Positions 17,704-27,147 of a stretch of DNA of 33,005 nucleotides are shown here, piece by piece. The notes below the pieces were generated by a model. It did not search any database. It was not told the origin of the DNA and worked only from the letters and a program-made list of their open reading frames with translations. This stretch comes from Okeania sp. SIO2B3. Lineage in GTDB: Bacteria; Cyanobacteriota; Cyanobacteriia; Cyanobacteriales; Microcoleaceae. The position numbers and the translations under genes were made by a program. The first letter of the stretch is position 1. The number at the start of each line of letters is the position of its first letter. The stretch spans positions 1-33,005 of the forward strand of contig NZ_JAAHGH010000086.1 in the NCBI RefSeq assembly GCF_010672525.1. Direction: 5' to 3'.

Positions 17704-17776
<73 letters not shown>

Positions 17777-17853
17777 TTCGGCCTTGCATAAATGCAGGAT
17801 GATTTTAATAATACAGTTAAGACTACCGCATCTGGTAGCAGCAGTCTATGTTA

Positions 17854-17945: not shown

Positions 17946-18258
17946 TATCTACATCATAAAAATGGTCTAACAGAGAATAGCCCAGTCGAGAAAAATTTCA
18001 AAAAAAAGTCATAAAAAGCTGAGGTCACTCGTCTAATTAGAAAAGGCAAAATCGAATAGAGGTTAGTCTTTATTGGCCTAATTCTGCTAGAGCCTATAGT
18101 ATATAGCCTTTCGGATAGAAATCTGGCCAAAATTGAAATGACCACTCCAAAAATGCAGGTGAAGCCCTAGCTAGCTCCAGGCTTACATCTTGTTTCTGGA
18201 CATATCTCAGGAAATACCATTCTATTGTATGAGACCCCAAAAGCAGTTAAAAGGAGAA

Positions 18259-18828
18259 ATGGCAATAAAAATGAAATTTACTAGGCTTAATTTTAAGGAT
18301 CTACTGACCACAGTAATCATAACAGCGACAATGTGTTTTACTTTTCTTCTGGCAAGTCCAGCATATGCAAAAGAGTGTAGAGTGATTAATACAGTAATTA
18401 CAAGTGCAAAAGTCAGCGAAAATACTAAAATGGGAGGGCATGTACTTCAACATATCTACGGACAAACACCTCCGACAAAAGACTTTTCTCAATTGGATAA
18501 AACATTATTTACGAATGCAGCTCAATATGAAGGTATATGGAATGCCTACAGAAATAGCACAAAAATTAGCAACCCAGCCAAATGCACTAAAATCACAGAC
18601 TCACCCCATAATTTTGATGTATTGTTAACCAAATTGCCAGGGCAACCAGAGTCAATAGAAGCATATCAGTGTCGCGAGGTGGATGATGATAAGCGATGTA
18701 CGAGGTATGTTCCAACACAAGTGACAACAGTGAATTTTGGATTTAAATATCAGAAAGAACGAAATAAAGCTAATCAAAATTGGGTTTTGAATACAGCATA
18801 TCCAGGTTACTCAAGACCGTCAAATTAA
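18259..18828 (+). CDS. Small Sec-exported protein, possible RNase-toxin-like domain
   Basis: 189 aa from the ATG at 18259; an in-frame ATG at 18271 is an equally possible start, since AAGGAG (18251-18256) sits awkwardly for both. A signal peptide (basic start, TVIITATMCFTFLL core, cleavage after SPAYA) precedes a mature domain with four cysteines (40, 109, 138, 147). Residues 58-67 read MGGHVLQHIY, followed by KTLFTNAAQYEGIWNAYRNS (81-100) and a C-terminal WVLNTAYP (175-182). A GGH...H start and a T-A-Y-P end recall the RNase-A-like CdiA C-terminal toxin family. This is a pattern match from memory, not an alignment. No immunity gene is recognised. It shares downstream flank sequences with the other two secreted genes of this island. 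Confidence 0.7.
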   Translation: MAIKMKFTRLNFKDLLTTVIITATMCFTFLLASPAYAKECRVINTVITSAKVSENTKMGGHVLQHIYGQTPPTKDFSQLDKTLFTNAAQYEGIWNAYRNSTKISNPAKCTKITDSPHNFDVLLTKLPGQPESIEAYQCREVDDDKRCTRYVPTQVTTVNFGFKYQKERNKANQNWVLNTAYPGYSRPSN

Positions 18829-19009
18829 GTGATGTAAACCGAAAAAAGGAAAAAAAAAGATTCAGGTAAAACAAAAGAGAAATCTAGGGGGCTGAAGATT
18901 GGTGGATGATCTTTCCCAGTTATAGTCCCGGAAAATTAAACAGTCCTGCTGACAAGAGCTTAAGTCACAACGCAAGAATGTTTTAGAGGCTTTTGATTTG
19001 TTAGTTAAT

Positions 19010-19320
19010 GGATGCAGATGAACGAATAATTTTCCTTGGGATCGGTTGGTAACGGGGCGATCGCCTATTTACCCAGACTATAGCCCAGTCGATAAAAATT
19101 AAAAAAAACAGAAGAATCAGAAAGGATAAAGAAACACCAATCCCAAAGATACTTAACTCAACCCTTGATAGTTCCTTCTGACCCAGGTCCATGCAGGTGA
19201 AAGGGAACGGGGCGATCGCCTCTTTCCCAACCCTTTCTGACTCAACCCTGAGTACTCCAATTCTGACTAAAATTCACCAACGGCGAGCATATTCCTCAAT
19301 GTGACTCGCTTTTACATTTT
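19010..19320. repeat. Island flanking block R1
   Basis: It contains AACGAATAATTTTCCTTGGG and GGGGCGATCGCC (also at 22050-22092), AATCAGAAAGGATAAAGAAA through CCCAAAGATACTTAACTCAA (also at 23593-23642), and ATTCACCAACGGCGAGC...CTCAATGTGACTCGC (also near 22150 and 23666). The last part can fold as a GGCGAG/CTCGCC stem. ATAGCCCAGTCGA (19079) also occurs at 17977. No gene is seen in 18829-19568. Confidence 0.65.
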
Positions 19321-19492
19321 GCTGGCAAAGTTAAGAAATATTATTAATGATTTTATAGCAAATTACATGAGAAGTTTGACCAAAATAAATGCTTAAACCC
19401 AGTCAGGGATTATTTTTTTACTTTTGACTTGGGTAAAGTAAGTATTAGAAATAATTATCTTTATTATTTATAAAAAAAATATACTTAAGCAG

Positions 19493-19522
19493 TTGACGTA
19501 GACATCACAGTAGAAATATGAT
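19493..19522 (+). promoter_or_regulatory. Candidate promoter of the sigma-factor gene
   Basis: TTGACG (19493-19498) and TATGAT (19517-19522) are spaced by 18 bases, close to the sigma-70-type consensus. They lie 130 bp upstream of the preferred start at 19650. Seen by eye only. Confidence 0.45.
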
Positions 19523-19649
19523 CGTGTTGCAGCAAAATTAAAACACTTTGAATACCCCAAATTAATCTATGGTTCATCTCAAGGCCGAGGAAAAAGGGAA
19601 ATTAACAGACCCGAACCCAGGAGGTGAAACTACCCAAGAGGGAGGAAGT

Positions 19650-20972
19650 ATGGCGATGTTAGCGATCTTGACTCCCCCTCCTGTGGCAGCCGCTCCCGGA
19701 AACGGCAAAAATCCTCAGAAATTGGAGAAAGACAATATAGAAAACGAATTTTGGCAGGTATGGTGCGAGCATCGAGACCGATTTTATCGCTGCTGTCTGA
19801 GGTTGATGAACTCTAACCATGCAGATGCCGAGGATGCTCTGAGTGAGGCAATGGTGAAGGCATTGGATAAGGTGCGCAAGTTCGCCGGGAAAATTGCTAA
19901 TTTGCCTGCTTGGTTGATGACCCTGACTCGAAATTTATGTCTGGATCTCATCCGTAAACGTTCTCGGAGAGCTGTGGGTGTAGATGATATAGAGTGGGTT
20001 GGTGATAGTGGAGAAATGGGGGTGGCGTCGGCGGTGGAGTTGCCAGAGCAGGTTTTGGAGAAGGATGAGAGGTCGGTGGTGATTCGACGGGCGATCGCTT
20101 CTTTGCCCAAACGGATGCGGGAAACTTTTATTTTACATTTTTATCAAGAGCTTTCTTCTCAGGAAATTGTCGAGCGACAGGGTATTTCCTACGATAGTGT
20201 TTACAAGCGCATCTCCCAGGCACGGAAAAAGTTGAAGCTGATGTTGAGCGGTTATTTCATTGATTTTGATGAGTCGGTGTTGGGCACAGAGAGAGAATTA
20301 GGGGATGGCAATGTATGGTGCCAGAAACAGGAAGATTTGGCAAATGTTTCGGTGCAGGGGATATCGGCAACTCCAGAGGTGTCTGGGGAAGAGGAGAAGA
20401 GGGAGGAGTTAGAAGTTGTGAGTGCGGACATTGCCTCCCAAAATTCCCAGGGGTTGGAGACTATGGCGGTATTGACATCGGAAGAGTGTGTCGAGGTGGA
20501 TGTGGCTGAAGAATCAGAATTTGTGGATGGTGCAGGGTCGTCGAAGGGTATGGTTGAGGAGAATATTGGTGATGGGGCAAATGTTTGTGGTGAGAATATG
20601 CTGTCGGCTATGATGCCAGTTGTGTTGTCGAGTTTGTTGATGGATGGGAAATGGACTGGATGTGTGGAGGCTCCTTTTAATGAATGGTGGCGCAAGGGGT
20701 TGATGTGGCTGTGCGATGGAGGAGGTATCCTTAGTGATATTGTTTTACGGCGATCGTGGGTGGTCTCGAAGTTGCTGAGTTTGAGACGGGATGAGATAGG
20801 GATGGGTACAGAGGGGGCGATCGGCTATTCACCTTCACCCCATATTAAGGACAGGATGAGACGACGCGATCGAGATTGGACTATGATGGAAAAGGCAGAG
20901 GAACAATTGCAGGTACCTCCTGAATTTGTTGATTCAGATGGTTATGTTGGCAAGTTTGACACTATAAGATAG
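19650..20972 (+). CDS. Sigma-70-type (ECF-like) RNA polymerase sigma factor with long C-terminal extension
   Basis: 440 aa from the ATG at 19650, chosen because GGAGGAAGT immediately precedes it. An in-frame ATG at 19569 would add 27 residues but has no ribosome site. Region 2 spans ~37-105 (HRDRFYRCCLRLMNSNHADAEDALSEAM, then AWLMTLTRNLCLDLIRKRSRR) and region 4 spans ~145-200 (IASLPKRMRETFILHFYQ, then SSQEIVERQGISYDSVYKRI). No regions 1 or 3, as in ECF factors. The following 240 residues are acidic, low in complexity and unrecognised; a tryptophan-rich patch (NEWWRKGLMWLCDGGG) and DRMRRRDRDW stand out. No anti-sigma gene is seen. Its 3' part is duplicated and scrambled at 22285-22590. It is more G-rich than neighbours, which may mean transfer. 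Confidence 0.85.
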   Translation: MAMLAILTPPPVAAAPGNGKNPQKLEKDNIENEFWQVWCEHRDRFYRCCLRLMNSNHADAEDALSEAMVKALDKVRKFAGKIANLPAWLMTLTRNLCLDLIRKRSRRAVGVDDIEWVGDSGEMGVASAVELPEQVLEKDERSVVIRRAIASLPKRMRETFILHFYQELSSQEIVERQGISYDSVYKRISQARKKLKLMLSGYFIDFDESVLGTERELGDGNVWCQKQEDLANVSVQGISATPEVSGEEEKREELEVVSADIASQNSQGLETMAVLTSEECVEVDVAEESEFVDGAGSSKGMVEENIGDGANVCGENMLSAMMPVVLSSLLMDGKWTGCVEAPFNEWWRKGLMWLCDGGGILSDIVLRRSWVVSKLLSLRRDEIGMGTEGAIGYSPSPHIKDRMRRRDRDWTMMEKAEEQLQVPPEFVDSDGYVGKFDTIR

Positions 20973-20987
20973 TGGGCGATCGCTTCA

Positions 20988-21005
20988 TTGGAATCGCAAT
21001 TCCAA
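20988..21005. promoter_or_regulatory. Inverted repeat after the sigma-factor gene
   Basis: TTGGAAT and ATTCCAA form a perfect 7-bp inverted repeat around CGCA, 15 bp after the sigma gene's stop. It may be a weak terminator, without a T-tract, or an operator for the downstream secreted gene. The rest of 20973-21282 is A-rich with no gene. Confidence 0.35.
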
Positions 21006-21282
21006 ATTAACATAGAGAAAAAGTTCAGGAAAAAAAGAATTAAAAAGTCTAAAAAGTGTGGGGCACAAAGAAAGTACAACTCCAAAAATAAAACGGACAA
21101 ATGCTACTTTGCTACTTAATTATGTGGAATAAAGGTTTTCTGCTTTTTACCTTAATTCTTTAATGGTAAGAAATAGAATGACAGAACAGCAAACCAAGTA
21201 GCAAAGGCAGAAAAAAACTAAAAATGTCACAGGGGGAGTTGTACTTGGCCTGATTGATAACGAAATAGAAAAGGGAAACAAA

Positions 21283-21753
21283 ATGAAAATAGAAATAACG
21301 AAAGTCAAACAAGTTCTAGCAACAATCGTCCTGGCCGTAATCATCGCAATGGGAGTTCAAACATTACCTGCGGATGCAGCAAATGTATACAATTGCAAAG
21401 TAGAGGAAGTAGGGAACGTTTGCCATTATATACTCAAACCAGGAGATATAATTATGTTGGACACGCCTGATACGAACCTGGAAGAGTACCCGATCCTCTT
21501 GGAAGCAGCAAACTTGTCCCATCTCTTGGATGCAAGTCTTTGGTACAAATGGATACCGGAATCAGGAGACAGCGATTTCGCGGCGTACAACCTCGAACGA
21601 TTAGGCTACAATCTTACAGAGCAAGGACAGGTGATCGAGGAAAACCAGATCGAGCAAGGGCACTATATCACGAACAAAGGTCAAGGAATAGGATGGGTCA
21701 GAAATCGATCGGTCTATGAGAATGTAGATATAGAAGTAGTAATTTACTCTTAA
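21283..21753 (+). CDS. Small Sec-exported protein, unknown function
   Basis: 156 aa. The signal peptide is MKIEITKVKQVLATIVLAVI..., with cleavage likely after PADA. The mature part has two cysteines ten residues apart near its start (NCKVEEVGNVCHYI), fitting one disulfide, then an acidic domain rich in Tyr, Leu and Glu (KPGDIIMLDTPDTNLEEYP, LLDASLWYKWIPESGD, QGIGWVRNRSVYENVDIEV). I recognise no family. The ribosome site AAAGGG lies 7-8 bases upstream of the ATG. It stands 310 bp downstream of the sigma-factor gene on the same strand, but no operon link can be shown. Confidence 0.7.
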   Translation: MKIEITKVKQVLATIVLAVIIAMGVQTLPADAANVYNCKVEEVGNVCHYILKPGDIIMLDTPDTNLEEYPILLEAANLSHLLDASLWYKWIPESGDSDFAAYNLERLGYNLTEQGQVIEENQIEQGHYITNKGQGIGWVRNRSVYENVDIEVVIYS

Positions 21754-22029
21754 CTCTTAGCTCTGGGGGAGGTGGAAAACTGCTTGTAAATCATGCTTTG
21801 CAGTAGTTTTAGCCAATATTCTTCTGAAAGATGCTATCTGTAATTGGCCTCGGGATTCAGAATATTAACGACATTCAGAGGGCATTCAGGCAACTTGATC
21901 GCCACTCAGTACCTGAATGGTCTATCTGTTCCGGCTAATTTTTTCTGGAGGGAGGTTTGATAAAAAGCTTATCCCAAAAGGTTTTGGCCTTGCCTGTAAC
22001 CCCTTCAGGCTGATTAATGAGACTTGATA

Positions 22030-22284
22030 TTAGTGAGAGGATGGAGATCAACGAATAATTTTCTTTGGGGTCGTATGGTAAGGGGCGATCGCTCCTTACC
22101 ATACCTGAGGAAGCTTAACCCTCGGTACTCCACTCCTAACCCAAATCAACCAACGGCGATCGCATTGCTCAATGTGACTCGCCGTTGCATTTCAGTTATC
22201 AGTACCTACCACCGATATCCCAAAAAATCCTTATTTCACGCAGTGAATGTTGCTGAGTTCGACACTAGATGAGACAATGAGCGA
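22030..22284. repeat. Island flanking block R2
   Basis: It shares AACGAATAATTTTCTTTGGG and GGGGCGATCGC with R1, and GGTACTCCACTCCTAACC, CCAACGGCGA...CTCAATGTGACTCGCC, TTCAGTTATCAGTACC, ACCACCGATATCCCAAAAAA and TAGATGAGACAATGAGCG-like sequence with R3 (23577-23822). The shared part with R3 is about 170 bp. No gene is seen between 21754 and 22887 apart from the sigma fragments. Confidence 0.7.
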
Positions 22285-22590
22285 TAGCCTATTCACCCTC
22301 ACCCCATAGTTTGACTTTGATGAGACGACGCGATCGAGATTGAACTATGATGGAAAAGGCAGAGGAACAATTGCAGGTACCTCCTGAATTTGTTGATTCA
22401 GATGGTTATGTTGGCAAGTTTGACACTGGATAAGATAGTGGGCGATCGCTTCTTTGCCCGAACGGATGCGGGAAACTTTTATTTTACATTTTTATGAAAA
22501 GCTTTCTTATCAGGAAATTGTCAAAAGGACAGGATGAGACGATAAGAAGGAGATTGGACTCATCTGGAAAAGGCAGAGGAGCAATTGGGG
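22285..22590 (+). pseudogene. Scrambled duplicate of the sigma-factor 3' region
   Basis: 22285-22440 repeats the end of the sigma gene (20821-20976) nearly base for base, through TTGCAGGTACCTCCTGAATT and GGTTATGTTGGCAAGTTTGA to AGTGGGCGATCGCTTC. There it switches to region 4 (20091-20172: TTTGCCCRAACGGATGCGGG...) up to about 22520. It then switches again to the C-terminal part, AAGGACAGGATGAGACGA (20849 onward), to about 22590. The first junction coincides with a shared GGGCGATCGCTTC containing HIP1. No complete ORF. Confidence 0.85.
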
Positions 22591-22647
22591 AAAACTACTT
22601 ACAGCGCTTTTCAAATTGATGAACCACATCTTCACACATCAAACCCT

Positions 22648-22675
22648 GTAGGGACGTTCCATGGAACGTCCCTAC
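22648..22675. repeat. 28-bp GTAG...CTAC palindrome
   Basis: GTAGGGACGTTCCA and TGGAACGTCCCTAC form a perfect 28-bp palindrome, upstream of the third secreted gene. See also 15407 and 24382. Confidence 0.8.
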
Positions 22676-22887
22676 TGTGGTCTACCGTGTAGGAAAACCG
22701 CTGTAATGAAATGATTTACACGGAAAGGTTCGCGAGTTAGACATATTAAAGAAATATAGTTCAGATAAAAGTGCTTGGAAACGTCGAAAAAATGTAAAGC
22801 CAAGAAAGCAAATTGCGAGAACAGAATGTGATAGTATTTGCGGAAAGGCTAGAAGGAAAAAACTTAAAAGAGAAAAGGACAAAATAA

Positions 22888-23547
22888 ATGTTAAAGAACA
22901 TAAAAGCGGGAATCATAGCAATAATGTTGAGCTTATTGCTAATCCCATTAACACCCAATCCTTCCTATGCATATGCAACAGACATAGAAGTATATCCCAA
23001 ACAAGAAGTTGTGGGCACCCCCTATGATAGCGAAACTGGAATAGATTACGAAGTAGCAAAAGAAATTTGTGAAGAAGAAAGGACCTTGTGCGATGCTTTC
23101 ACAGTGTATTACGGCACTCCTAATAAGGGATATTTCTATAGTTTGGAGGATAATCCAGATGGGCTGGAATTGAAAAGTTTTCGAGGAGCGGATAGTGGAT
23201 ACAGAAATTATCCCGGAGAAGTAGCAGTATCATGTCTAGTTGAACCCGATTATCTTGATTTATCTGAGAGCAAGATGAATCCTAGTCTTGGCTACATTCA
23301 GGAATGGTTGTCTGTAGTGGATGGGACAGCAAAGTCAATAGATCTAGCCCTGAATAACACCGGGTACAACGAGGAAACTATAACTCTTGTAGCAGGGAAT
23401 TGTGTAAAAAACATACAAGCACCAGGAGGTTATACGATAGAAGTGGAAGACATTTGTGATGGATATCCCCCATTCAAAAATATGCAAGTGCGTGCACTTT
23501 ATCCATCGAATATTCATCTACTTGTAACAGAGTGTGAGCCTGAGTAA
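22888..23547 (+). CDS. Small Sec-exported cysteine-rich protein, unknown function
   Basis: 219 aa. The signal peptide is MLKNIKAGIIAIMLSLLLIPL..., with cleavage likely after NPSYA. The mature part is acidic with six cysteines (EICEEERTLC, VSCLVEP, AGNCVKN, DICDGY, VTECEPE), an even number that fits three disulfides in an exported protein. No family is recognised. AAAGGAC lies 8 bases before the ATG. The downstream flank (23577-23822) is the R3 copy of the island block. Confidence 0.7.
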   Translation: MLKNIKAGIIAIMLSLLLIPLTPNPSYAYATDIEVYPKQEVVGTPYDSETGIDYEVAKEICEEERTLCDAFTVYYGTPNKGYFYSLEDNPDGLELKSFRGADSGYRNYPGEVAVSCLVEPDYLDLSESKMNPSLGYIQEWLSVVDGTAKSIDLALNNTGYNEETITLVAGNCVKNIQAPGGYTIEVEDICDGYPPFKNMQVRALYPSNIHLLVTECEPE

Positions 23548-23576
23548 AAATTAAGGGAAAAGAAGGAAAACAGGAT

Positions 23577-23822
23577 TGTAAAGGAATAGAAGAATCAGAA
23601 AGGATAAAGAAACAGCAATCCCAAAGATACTTAACTCAACCCTGGTTACTCCACTCCTAACCTAAATTCACCAACGGCGAGCCTATTCCTCAATGGGACT
23701 CGCCTATTTCAGTTATCAGTTATCAGTTATCAGTACCAACCACCGATATCCCAAAAAATCTTTATTTCACACAGTAAGTAATGTTGGCGAGTTTGACACC
23801 AGATGAGACAATGAGCGGTCGC
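23577..23822. repeat. Island flanking block R3
   Basis: It contains GAAGAATCAGAAAGGATAAA and CCCAAAGATACTTAACTCAA (shared with R1), the GGCGAGCCTATTCCTCAATG...GACTCGCC stem, AGTTATC heptamers, CACCGATATCCCAAAAAATC, and GTTGGCGAGTTTGACACCAG. The last recalls the last codons of the sigma gene (VGKFDT). It ends directly against the Rpn pseudogene. Confidence 0.7.
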
Positions 23823-23827
23823 CTCAC

Positions 23828-24569
23828 TCAATTCAGACTCAAACGTTCCTGCAACCAACTTTCCAAATCTACCAAACTATTAAAACTTAAAAATACCTTT
23901 ACTAAATCTTCTACATCTGCTAAAGGCAAACTTTCTATCTGACTACTAATCTCTTCAGAAACCTCTCCAAAACGTTGAGTTATTAACAGTTTTATTAGAG
24001 CGATCGCTTGATTAAGTAGTCCTATTGCTTCCCCTCTTGCTTCCCCTTATTGCTCTGCATAAGCTATCCGTCCTCTTTCATCTTGCATTGCTATCCCTCG
24101 GTTTTCAACTATCTCTAACTCCTCTGGACTCATATTAATAAAATTAGCAATATTTAAAGCTTGTTCTATTTCCGCAACTTCCCCTAAACTCTCTGGTATC
24201 TCATCAAAACTAGCCGCCTCTTTCAGGAAATAAATCCACTTATCTGTCAAACTCTTTAACTCCGACAAACTTTTTTTAAACTTCGGCAGTTCCACAAAAA
24301 TTAACCGCAATTCTTTTTCCAAGCATTTATACGTTTTAGTTTCCTCCTGAAACACAAATTTATTAATATAATCATCTTTATGGCGAATGGCCATTCGCCC
24401 CTACATATAATTTGACCGGGATTAAAAGGGTTGACAATTGTCAAAGATTCAATGGTTTTTTCTCCATTATAAATTATTGCATTCAGAAAACTGATTAAAA
24501 TCTCTTTGCTTTGTTCGGAACCAAATATTTTTTTAAAGCATAATCGACCTTGGGATTGATAAATTTCAT
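23828..24569 (-). pseudogene. Rpn-family PD-(D/E)XK nuclease / putative transposase, disabled
   Basis: From ATG at 24569 it reads MKFINPKVDYALKKYLV; a one-base loss in a run of A would restore the expected FKKIFGSEQSKEIL...NAIIYNGEKTIESLTIVNPF. The core nuclease part is then missing and replaced by a truncated palindrome at 24382-24404. The frame resumes with LRLIFVELPKFKKSL...LTDKWIYFL, runs to AEQ, meets TAA at 24047-24049, and continues in frame with GEARGEAIGLLNQ and a DUF4351-like end (RFGEVSEEI...LVDLESWLQERL). At least three lesions, so non-functional. In the living family these are Rpn recombination-promoting nucleases. Confidence 0.85.
24382..24404. repeat. Truncated GTAG...CTAC palindrome within the Rpn pseudogene
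   Basis: GGCGAATGG/CCATTCGCC is perfectly palindromic and is followed by CCTAC. The other outer arm (GTAGG) is missing. It marks the site where about 80 codons of the nuclease gene were lost. Confidence 0.7.
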
Positions 24570-24607
24570 AGTAGCTTTTCTCCCTATATAAATAACCAGA
24601 AATGAAG

Positions 24608-25840: not shown

Positions 25841-25990
25841 GACATCCTCCCGACGCTGCTCTTAGGAGACAGCGCGGGATTCCCTGGCATCACTGTTAGG
25901 GGCTTTCTGTTTCTTAGCACCCGCCTTCCGAGATTTGCTCCCTTCAGGTCTTACGGTCGCTCCACAGACTGACACTGCGAGTCCCGCAGC
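25841..25990 (-). ncRNA. Putative omega-RNA / right-end region of the TnpB element
   Basis: On the minus strand the 3' end of tnpB runs into CCCGCGCTG...CAGCGTCGGG (stem, about 25850-25879) and ends GGAGGATGTC at 25841, a typical IS200/IS605 right end. In active TnpB systems this region is transcribed as the guide (omega) RNA scaffold, with the guide being the flank, here about 25821-25840. Since tnpB here is broken, the RNA may be a relic. The 5' limit is a guess. Confidence 0.35.
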
Positions 25991-27147
25991 CTTCTTGGTG
26001 GGCGTTCCCTTGCGTCTATCGCCGACGCGGGTTCCCATCCGCAAAATATTTATACTTGCGTTTATGTCGCGGTCATGGTGACTACTACATTCAGGACAAT
26101 CCCACTCTCTAATATTTAGAGGTAATTTCTCCACTACATGACCACAATTAGAGCAACGCTTAGAACTAGGGAAATACCTGTCAATCTTAATTAATTGACG
26201 ACCGTACCACTCTGCTTTGTATTCTAATTGCCTAACTAATTCTCCCCAGTTGGCATCACTACCCACCCCTCTTGCTCCCCTCCCGGGAGGGGATGGGGGT
26301 GGGTTATGATTCTTGACCATGTTTTTTACCGCTAAATCTTCCACTACAATCAATTGATTTTCTTTGATTATTTGAGTGGTTAACTTATGGGTATAGTCTT
26401 CTCTTGAATCTTTAATCTTGGCGTGTATCCTAGCTAAAATCAGCCTGGCCTTTTGATAGTTATTAGACCCCTTGGTTTTTCTAGATAGAGACTTCCCTGC
26501 TAACCTAAGTTTTTTGTGTAACTTTTTGAGGTTCTTTGGATTAGCAATTTTTTCTCCATCACTGGTAGTAACTAAACTGGTAATTCCTAAGTCAATACCT
26601 ATTTGCTTAGTTACTGACTTAAGCTTCAAGTTTCTAGGGTCATTGACTCTAAGGGACACTGACCATCTGTTACTGGGGTCAAGTTTTACGGTAATTGTGC
26701 TTGGTACACAGTTTTGAGGTATTTGCCTACTCCATCTGATAGGTAATGGTTCAGCACATTTAGCGATCTGAGACTTGACCATCTTTCCACTTAAATGCGG
26801 ACTTTGTAAATTCTGCACTACCGCCCCGGGCGCTTTTTCTTAAAGTTAGGATATTTGGCACGTCCACTAAAAAAGTTAGTAAAAGCAGTTTGTAGATGTC
26901 TTAAACCTTGCTGTAATGGGACGCTACTGACTTCTGTGAGGAAATCTAAATCTTCCTGCTTTTTCCAGTGAGTTAGCATAGCAGAAGTTTGCTTATACCC
27001 TACTCGCTCTTTGTTTTCATACCAAGCTTGAGTTCTAGCAGCTAAAGCTCTGTTGTAGATCAGTCGAACACAGCCTAAAGTCCTCCTCAACAGGTTTTCC
27101 TGTTCTGGAGTAGGATAGAACCTAAACTTGTAAGCTTTTTCAACCAT
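25862..27147 (-). pseudogene. tnpB: TnpB (IS200/IS605-type RNA-guided nuclease), frameshifted
   Basis: Two frames together make one TnpB. Residues 1-109 (from ATG at 27147) start MVEKAYKFRFYPTPEQENLL and stop after NFKKKRPGR. The next piece GGSAEFTKSAFKWKDGQV is in a second frame, and SQIAKCAEPLPIRW onward is in a third. One extra G in GGGG (about 26823) and a one-base change near 26785 would explain this. RuvC motifs are intact: GIDLGITSLVT (Asp), VVEDLAVKNM (Glu), zinc finger CSNCG...CPEC, and DRDINAS (Asp). A 45-bp repeat (26261-26305) is read in frame as PPPSPPGRGARGVGS where SDANWGEL normally follows a short linker. No tnpA is present. It sits between the coiled-coil gene and ytxH. Confidence 0.85.
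26261..26305. repeat. CCCCTCC/GGAGGGG hairpin repeat inserted in tnpB
   Basis: ACCCACCCCTCTTGCTCCCC followed by TCCCGGGAGGGGA and GGGGGTGGGT. It belongs to a family with members at 7346-7376, 10971-11001, 25110-25146 and 27754-27785, sharing AACCCACC, then CCTCC and GGAGGGG. Exactly 45 bp, so the reading frame is kept. Confidence 0.85.

What the first reader, a model, noticed from the sequence alone, without database searches (positions are those of the whole stretch)
17977..23822. Island of a sigma factor with divergent secreted proteins set in recurring flanking blocks
Three unrelated-looking Sec-exported proteins (189, 156 and 219 aa) lie around an ECF-like sigma gene. All have even cysteine counts in the mature part (4, 2, 6), consistent with disulfide-stabilised export. 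Their downstream flanks share long segments (R1 19010-19320, R2 22030-22284, R3 23577-23822), including a GGCGAG/CTCGCC stem and sequence like the end of the sigma gene. The pattern, conserved flanks with a different gene in each slot, suggests a cassette-type locus in which genes are exchanged by recombination between flanks, possibly under the sigma factor. The layout is seen; the cassette model and regulation are inference.
Basis: partly seen in the sequence, partly recalled or inferred. Interest (0 to 1): 0.7.

Follow-up and report, generated by a model that had tools for sequence, protein, structure and literature searches.

The report
Sigma-linked slots with swapped secreted proteins
In a large filamentous cyanobacterium related to Okeania, a regulatory gene sits beside slots that share a promoter motif and a downstream remnant of a reverse-transcriptase gene but hold a different, probably exported protein in each slot and in most relatives compared, which looks like a rapidly replaced set of exported weapons or surface proteins.

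Summary
An ECF-type sigma gene (19569-20972) lies among three unrelated, probably exported proteins, each followed by an R block. The three mature proteins found no match in 38 other genomes. New: (1) all three genes have a two-block promoter motif, GTCAGAAA-N12/13-ACGTCTTA, found before 24 of 32 exported genes at related sigma loci against 9 of 109 control genes, and at sigma loci of Nostoc and Moorena not used for training. (2) Before R1 lie the last 15 codons of the gene that three relatives carry in that slot. (3) R blocks are relics of the 3' end of a UG4-type reverse-transcriptase gene. Genes with this motif elsewhere include a perforin-domain protein, LodA oxidases, peptidases and a chitinase-like protein. 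Best reading: a sigma-controlled, rapidly replaced cargo island, probably antagonistic proteins. Recombination between shared borders is the likely route; a role for the reverse transcriptase is open.

The parts
17704..17776 (+). tRNA-Phe; the 5' border of slot 1 lies just after it
   Evidence: ARAGORN, Rfam; homology of the tRNA region to L063, L065, L066, L067 and L088 ends at 17777-17817
18008..18037 (+). predicted ECF-type promoter of exported gene 1 (GTCATAAA-N13-TCGTCTAAT)
   Evidence: PWM score 24.6; leave-one-out 24.0
18259..18828 (+). exported gene 1 (189 aa, 4 Cys in mature part)
   Evidence: no match in 38 other genomes
18974..19021 (+). scar: last 15 codons (KNVLEAFDLLVNGCR) plus stop of the cargo gene that L063, L065 and L066 hold in this slot
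   Evidence: tblastn 11 of 15 identical, E 3.7e-4; nucleotide alignment
19065..19202 (+). insert in R1 absent from L063, L065 and L066; its parts resemble the start of cassette 1 and the 3' region of exported gene 3
19226..19354 (-). R1 core: relic of the 3' end of a UG4-type reverse-transcriptase gene
   Evidence: R model; tblastn with RT C-terminal peptide E 5.6e-8
19569..20972 (+). ECF-type sigma factor with long C-terminal extension (467 aa)
   Evidence: Sigma70_r2 E 2.5e-14, Sigma70_r4_2 E 6.3e-14
21024..21053 (+). predicted promoter of exported gene 2 (TTCAGGAA-N13-AAGTCTAAA; departs from CGTC)
   Evidence: PWM 17.5; leave-one-out 14.7
21283..21753 (+). exported gene 2 (156 aa, 2 Cys in mature part)
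22030..22290 (+). R2 block: left part R1-like (resembles the old-gene scar), right part R3-like
22105..22197 (-). R2 core: relic of the UG4-type RT 3' end
   Evidence: tblastn E 1.7e-7; R model
22281..22587 (+). fragments of further sigma copies (3' end; region 4; 3' end again)
   Evidence: 161 of 174 and 79 of 83 aligned bases identical to the intact gene
22760..22789 (+). predicted promoter of exported gene 3 (TTCAGATA-N13-ACGTCGAAA)
   Evidence: PWM 18.1; leave-one-out 14.6
22888..23547 (+). exported gene 3 (219 aa, 6 Cys in mature part)
23580..23824 (+). R3 block
   Evidence: R model 23620-23720
23620..23706 (-). R3 core: relic of the UG4-type RT 3' end
   Evidence: tblastn E 1.4e-4
24047..24394 (-). 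PD-(D/E)XK (PDDEXK_2) nuclease-transposase remnant; right border of the island
   Evidence: Pfam E 1.6e-15; the region matches one to three places in L063, L065, L066, L067 and L088

Best explanation
This is a sigma-controlled, exchangeable cargo island. The ECF-type sigma factor directs RNA polymerase to a two-block promoter (about GTCAGAAA-N12/13-ACGTCTTA) that each cargo cassette brings with it. The cassette (promoter, exported gene, 3' region) lies between a conserved left border (sigma 3' end or tRNA-Phe side) and a conserved right border (relic of the 3' end of a UG4-type reverse-transcriptase gene). Cassettes are replaced or added by recombination using these shared borders, which leaves scars: the last codons of an old gene, mosaic R blocks and sigma fragments. 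Shown by sequence: motif, difference of slot content between relatives, scar, nature of R. Inferred: that this sigma uses the motif, that exchange is by homologous recombination, and that the cargo is a set of extracellular antagonistic proteins (against competitors, grazers or fungi).
For: Slots: none of the five syntenic loci L063, L065, L066, L067 and L088 has a DNA match over the three cargo genes, while MBOAT, the tRNA-Phe region and sigma match at 80-98%. L063, L065, L066 and L067 hold cargo of 252, 103, 239 and 254 aa downstream of sigma; in L088 none was detected. Mature cargo 1-3: 0 of 38 other genomes have a tblastn match at E 0.01. Enrichment: at sigma loci with core identity of 58% or more, 29 of 53 same-strand genes within 5 kb downstream are called exported, against 21 of 211 other genes (Fisher 1.4e-11). 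The 41 exported calls on the sigma strand from -2.5 to +6.5 kb, over all loci, fall into 30 BLASTP groups. Motif: leave-one-out score of 12 or more in 24 of 32 exported-gene upstreams against 9 of 109 controls (the seed words came from the same 32). At score 19, loci that include the training set have 28 sites near sigma on the same strand, 1 on the opposite strand and 1 in the reversed-sequence control; loci never used for training (Nostoc, Moorena, Scytonema and others) have 15, 1 and 0. Sites without a sigma gene nearby precede an exported 142-aa gene (C195) and LodA and GMC genes (C23). Scar. Named domains of genes with the motif: GH18, PLAT, subtilase, LodA (2), MACPF with a B_lectin hit just under cut-off, C39/C70 peptidase, M35, CBM96.
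Against: The window's own sigma gene has no convincing site of this motif (score 1.6), and 5 of 11 non-redundant sigma upstreams score 10 or more, so autoregulation is not general. At score 19 a further 11 and 7 sites lie outside -1 to +5 kb of sigma in the two sets of loci. In loci with core identity below 58% exported genes are not enriched (5 of 48 against 22 of 160), so 'secreted' does not define the regulon there. Of 32 exported upstreams, 8 lack the motif at score 12. No cargo function was tested, and the window's three proteins match nothing. A fatty acid desaturase with the motif and, by eye, a VWA-like protein fit an arsenal poorly. Signal peptides rest on a heuristic that also of 50 genes in loci without the sigma and misflagged YtxH-like proteins (two of the 41). 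Several relatives are metagenome-assembled genomes, so contig errors are possible.
Confidence: 0.68

Rival explanations
1. UG4 reverse transcriptase drives the exchange: cargo transcripts ending in the R element are recognised by the RT, copied to cDNA and put back at sites bearing the same 3' sequence, much as non-autonomous elements borrow the 3' end of an autonomous one.
For: R elements lie 3' of cargo in the same orientation. By my hand reading, 20 of 30 lie within about 600 nt of an exported gene's stop and 4 more follow other cargo (15 of the 30 were in the model's own alignment, chosen by DNA similarity); random positions have an exported ORF ending within 450 nt upstream in 38 of 1710. 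Strong UG4 matches are rare: 6 loci in 39 genomes, own included, at E 4.5e-40 or better (matches from 1.9e-38 on I took for other RT classes without a class test). Of those 6, three lie at sigma-cargo loci (L065, L070, L096) and one (L140) in this very syntenic slot. The RT at L074, near a Nostoc sigma gene, is an uninterrupted 345-aa frame. 66% of UG4 RTs in complete genomes are reported near fimbrial domains (PMC8934634 passages).
Against: RTs at the sigma loci of Okeania are broken, and the window keeps only relics. R runs antisense to the RT message. No cDNA-like signature (precise 5' truncation, target-site duplication) was sought. Two of the six RT loci (L105, near a contig end, and L139) have no exported gene called beside them.
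Confidence: 0.15
2. No dedicated exchange: a fast-evolving hot spot beside a tRNA gene and transposase remnants where orphan genes come and go by general and illegitimate recombination. R blocks are passive debris that happened to stay, perhaps as terminators.
For: The PDDEXK_2 region recurs in all five syntenic loci and a split IS605 OrfB lies in the window; R copies contain stop codons in the RT frame; cargo is decayed in L063 and L066.
Against: 24 of 32 exported genes keep the motif. R sits 3' of cargo in unrelated loci. The hairpin is kept where the surrounding R sequence is not (short matches at L065 7115 and L066 12344).
Confidence: 0.3
3. The cargo are variable surface or decoy proteins (against phage adsorption, grazers or for kin recognition) rather than weapons, switched on by the same sigma.
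For: In the window all three are small, with even Cys counts, probably exported, unrelated to each other and unmatched in other species; UG4 RTs elsewhere accompany fimbrial genes (PMC8934634).
Against: Genes with the motif elsewhere include perforin-domain, oxidase and peptidase proteins. Surface anchoring of the window proteins was not tested.
Confidence: 0.25

Closest known systems
ECF (group 4) sigma factors with a small neighbouring regulon
   Same: Regions 2 and 4 only, a CGTC-type -10 block (that this is typical of ECF promoters is recalled), targets next to the sigma gene
   Different: Targets are unrelated genes that differ between species; no anti-sigma gene recognised next to the window's sigma; long C-terminal extension
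ECF sigma / DUF1822 genes near EACC2-caspase conflict systems (PMC8195603, passages)
   Same: Related sigma branch: L092 and L098 hold a second, more distant sigma beside a TPR-like protein that I read as DUF1822 (label from no call)
   Different: No caspase or EACC2 gene recognised at the window locus; cargo here is probably exported and variable
Integron gene cassettes
   Same: Variable genes, each followed by a conserved element with a hairpin
   Different: Each cassette has its own promoter motif; no integrase among 18 window proteins scanned; R is derived from a protein gene
UG4 reverse transcriptases (PADLOC RT_UG4; PMC8934634, PMC4244168, passages)
   Same: RT at L074 matches RT_UG4 at E 3.9e-120; exported-protein genes lie beside the RT at L065 and L070
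   Different: Cyanobacterial, whereas PMC4244168 gives UG4 as restricted to Proteobacteria in its 2014 set; found near a sigma gene; mostly decayed
LodA/GoxA antimicrobial oxidases (PMC4417212, start of abstract in search listing)
   Same: LodA-domain genes have the motif in the own genome and in a Nostoc
   Different: Not present in the window

Membership tests
ECF sigma factor | Sigma70 region 2 and region 4 without region 3 | tested here: met
   Pfam matches above cut-off to r2, r4_2 and r4 only; TIGR02937 96.4 bits over cut-off 42.9
ECF sigma factor | ECF-type target promoter with CGTC-like -10 block | tested here: met
   Block 2 consensus ACGTCTTAT in cargo upstreams; use by this sigma is inferred
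ECF sigma factor | Cognate anti-sigma encoded next to it | tested here: inconclusive
   No anti-sigma family among 8 window proteins around the sigma scanned with Pfam; ORFs under 90 aa not scanned. 13 of 47 sigma loci have a related gene found by text match, AAA_35 in 10 of 11 scanned
Integron | Tyrosine recombinase IntI | tested here: not met
   No integrase family among 18 of the 25 window genes of 100 aa or more; the other 7 and the rest of the genome not searched
Integron | attC sites with R/L core motifs | tested here: inconclusive
   R has a stem with a bulged base, but its sequence is that of an RT gene end; attC motifs not searched
UG4 reverse transcriptase | Match to the RT_UG4 profile as best class | tested here: met
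   For relatives L074, L065 and for L105 of the own genome. The window holds only C-terminal relics
Group II intron | Maturase-class RT plus intron RNA | tested here: not met
   group_II_RT_mat 112 and 99 bits against cut-off 300; no intron RNA in 5 loci with RT genes at gathering scores
Diversity-generating retroelement | RT of DGR class with template and variable repeats in the target | tested here: inconclusive
   Best PADLOC class is UG4; cargo differ wholly; template repeats not searched
Known anti-phage defence system | Match to PADLOC models | tested here: not met
   0 of the 4 window proteins scanned (sigma and the three exported) matched at E 0.01

The most novel reading that the evidence does not exclude
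A retroelement-assisted cassette system. A UG4 reverse transcriptase, encoded convergently 3' of exported-protein genes, recognises the R element at cassette 3' ends and moves or replaces cassettes next to a dedicated ECF sigma factor, which then expresses whichever cargo is present. It would be a new way to diversify the exported protein repertoire of multicellular bacteria and would give UG4 RTs a function.
Probability: 0.13. Interest if true: 0.92.

Novelty: new variant of a known kind. Interest (0 to 1): 0.7.

Why it matters
It gives a rule (sigma gene plus promoter motif plus right-border element) for finding fast-turnover effector genes that homology cannot detect: the three window proteins are orphans in the genomes searched, yet appear to belong to one predictable regulon. 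It joins perforin-domain, LodA, peptidase, chitinase-like and orphan exported proteins of cyanobacteria under one predicted promoter, and it gives the UG4 reverse transcriptases, for which the passages I saw name no function, a concrete, testable context.

Tried and rejected
R as a generic repeat or a structured RNA: rejected as the main reading. There are 8 copies in the own genome, no Rfam family in the window other than tRNA at gathering scores, and covariation in the stem is slight (2 of 10 pairs). R as the end of a group II intron: rejected. Cargo as one divergent family: 41 proteins fall into 30 BLASTP groups. A short N-terminal C-x-V...C...GD-like pattern recurs in several by eye, but I could not test it by structure: AlphaFold2 on single sequences of genes 2 and 3 gave mean pLDDT 37.7 and 35.4, so no fold search was run. 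Solved structures: no hit for gene 3, one chance-level hit (E 3.1) for gene 2; gene 1 not searched. Autoregulation of the window's sigma: no site. Genome-wide motif sites with no clear cargo: C124 and C233, and the one-mismatch sites on C13, C112 (two) and C195:233158; the one on C230 precedes a 389-aa gene called exported. Papers: searches listed none that by title or start of abstract describes this system, and one search returned none; UG4 with reverse transcriptase gave 3 papers, one unrelated by title. The ECF classification paper PMC7826278 is not held.
Full report
What is there. The window lies in contig C235 of a 10.0 Mb genome of 249 contigs. The closest named matches to the sigma core are from Okeania metagenome-assembled genomes. 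Between a conserved MBOAT gene with tRNA-Phe on the left and a conserved 101-aa gene on the right lies the island: exported gene 1, R1, sigma, exported gene 2, R2, sigma fragments, exported gene 3, R3, PDDEXK_2 remnant.

Slot content differs. I aligned the window with five loci that share its left flank and sigma (L063, L065, L066, L067, L088). MBOAT, the tRNA-Phe region and sigma align at 80-98% DNA identity. The three exported genes have no match; short repeat pieces around them do. Downstream of sigma the relatives hold other genes: 252 aa in L063, 254 aa in L067 (85.7% identical to the L063 gene), 103 aa in L065 and 239 aa in L066, all called exported; none was detected in L088. L064 carries a close sigma (90%) in another genomic setting, with two exported genes of 137 and 141 aa. 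L140 has the MBOAT and 101-aa flanks but a 348-aa gene, a broken UG4 reverse transcriptase and no sigma between them. A joint query of the three mature window proteins found no match at E 0.01 in 38 other genomes, four of them congeneric.

A scar of replacement. In L063, L065 and L066 the slot upstream of sigma holds a gene beginning MFLEKLKQW: open at 139 aa in L065, broken by stops in the other two. In the window this gene is gone, but its last 15 codons remain at 18974-19018, followed by the same stop and 3' sequence (11 of 15 residues identical, tblastn E 3.7e-4). R2 begins with a related but more decayed copy of that end. R1 also contains a 138-base insert absent from those three relatives. 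It resembles the start of cassette 1 (33 of 46 bases) and the 3' region of gene 3 (63 of 69 bases), as if a tandem cassette had been inserted and largely lost; that reading is inference. R2 joins an R1-like left part to an R3-like right part, and sigma 3' ends are repeated before gene 3.

The same pattern at other sigma loci. The own genome has paralogues of this sigma on C72, C19 and C239, and a split one on C181. I examined 47 loci including the window (fetched; some orthologous, two overlapping). Where the sigma core is at least 58% identical to the window's, 29 of 53 same-strand genes within 5 kb downstream are called exported, against 21 of 211 other genes in the same loci (Fisher p 1.4e-11). 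Where identity is lower (Nostoc, Moorena, Scytonema and others) there is no enrichment (5 of 48 against 22 of 160). The loci are not fully independent, so the p-value is too small. The signal-peptide calls come from a simple script; its rate in six loci without this sigma is 6 of 50.

A shared promoter motif. Among gapped word pairs in 32 non-redundant upstream regions of exported genes, GTCA-N18-CGTC stood out among the pairs that are not A-runs (11 of 32; A-run pairs reached 12). A two-block matrix seeded from it (GTCAGAAA, spacer of 12 or mostly 13, ACGTCTTAT) scored at least 12 by leave-one-out in 24 of 32, against 9 of 109 upstream regions of other genes in the same loci. By their scores some of those controls are themselves cargo, such as the subtilase gene on C19. 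The three window genes score 24.0, 14.7 and 14.6. At a cut-off of 19, in loci that include the training set, sites near sigma number 28 on the same strand and 1 on the opposite strand, with 1 in the reversed-sequence control and 11 farther away. In loci never used for training the figures are 15, 1, 0 and 7; this is the independent test. In the whole own genome, exact and one-mismatch versions give 11 and 15 sites with 5 and 5 in controls, so about a third to a half may be chance. Sites on contigs with no sigma match precede an exported 142-aa gene on C195, a 193-aa gene on C217, and GMC and LodA genes on C23. The window's sigma gene lacks the motif; 5 of 11 non-redundant sigma upstreams have it at a score of 10 or more.

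What the R blocks are. The model of R found 8 places in the own genome and 30 in 49 loci (15 of these had gone into the model). Of the 8, six follow a gene called exported on the same strand: three in the window, C19, C72, and C249, where the protein resembles PAN domains only below cut-off; the two on C23 do not clearly do so. Of the 30, I count by hand 20 within about 600 nt 3' of an exported gene, 4 after other cargo and 6 unclear or not. Random positions have an exported ORF ending within 450 nt upstream in 38 of 1710. The reverse strand of R corresponds to the C-terminus of a reverse transcriptase. In L065 this peptide is in frame with an RT fragment holding the YMDD motif. The RT is of the UG4 class: E 3.9e-120 for an uninterrupted 345-aa frame about 2 kb downstream of the sigma gene of a Nostoc genome (L074), E 1.9e-117 for one on C186 of the own genome, E 1.8e-69 for an L065 fragment. 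It is not a group II maturase by NCBIfam cut-off, and no intron RNA was found at gathering scores. Strong UG4 matches are rare here: six loci in 39 genomes, own included, at E 4.5e-40 or better. Three lie at sigma-cargo loci, one in this syntenic slot without sigma, and two have no exported gene called beside them. In 386 genomes drawn from the phylum only the own genome passed 1e-50; at most five candidates per genome were scored there.

Cargo and likely role. Genes with this motif across the loci encode: GH18-like and PLAT proteins (C72), a subtilase in a peptide-precursor-like cluster (C19), LodA oxidases (C23 and a Nostoc), a GMC oxidoreductase (C23), a MACPF protein whose B_lectin match is just under cut-off (Nostoc carneum), C39/C70-like and M35 peptidases, a CBM96 protein and a fatty acid desaturase. 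A cupin protein on C23 has a weak site (15.4); a DUF642 protein at the C239 sigma locus has none, though a BLASTP relative in L092 does. Of the 20 proteins scanned had no Pfam match at E 0.01 and two more only matches below or barely at cut-off. Several of the named domains suit extracellular attack or defence, hence the arsenal reading; this is inference from family names, and the desaturase does not fit it. A gene found by text match lies near the sigma in 13 of 47 loci; of 11 scanned, 10 are AAA_35 NTPases and one Nostoc protein has a response-regulator domain. It may be the sensor; the window's locus lacks one. Accessory AAA_35 and NB-ARC domains fused to cyanobacterial sigma factors are reported in PMC11119718 (passages).

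Judgement. A shared ECF-like promoter motif and replacement of cargo between relatives are well supported by sequence; use of the motif by this sigma is inferred. The route of exchange is not shown. The repeated sigma 3' ends and R blocks make homologous recombination between borders the simplest route. The recurring link to a UG4 reverse transcriptase, a class noted beside fimbrial genes elsewhere (PMC8934634, passages), leaves a retroelement route open at low probability. Papers searched; none listed describes this system by title or start of abstract.

Noticed in passing
L028 1586-5675 (own genome C19): Downstream of the sigma paralogue, two motif sites precede a subtilase gene, two 329-335 aa proteins and two 78-79 aa Cys-rich peptides sharing a GVEGQF leader-like stretch: a possible ribosomal peptide cluster under the same sigma.
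   Followed up: partly
L072 13755-16244: A Nostoc carneum gene with a MACPF (perforin) domain and a B_lectin match just under cut-off has the motif 106 nt upstream, near the same sigma family.
   Followed up: partly
L065 4343-6004: The sigma gene has an in-frame internal partial duplication (553 aa), with a third partial copy downstream; sigma fragments recur at several loci.
   Followed up: no
window 21070-21255: By eye, a long nested inverted repeat (AAGTACAACTCC / GGAGTTGTACTT and an inner pair) lies between the motif and the start codon of exported gene 2.
   Followed up: no
window 25862-27147: IS605 OrfB (TnpB-like, Cas12f1-like TNB domain) split over two ORFs next to the conserved 101-aa gene.
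   Followed up: partly
L108 6130-6477 (own genome C249): An R-like element lies about 350 nt 3' of a 115-aa protein called exported, with PAN-domain similarity below cut-off; no sigma match on this contig and no motif site at score 15 or more.
   Followed up: partly
L032 (own genome C23): GMC oxidoreductase, a cupin-domain protein called exported and LodA share one contig with motif sites and two R elements but no sigma match: a possible remote part of the regulon.
   Followed up: partly
L140 (G021:C1069): Same MBOAT and 101-aa flanks as the window, but no sigma between them and a broken UG4 RT facing a different 348-aa gene.
   Followed up: partly
window 23841-24600 and the matching place in L063, L065, L066, L067, L088: The PDDEXK_2 transposase-like region matches one to three places at the right border of the island in all five compared relatives.
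   Followed up: no
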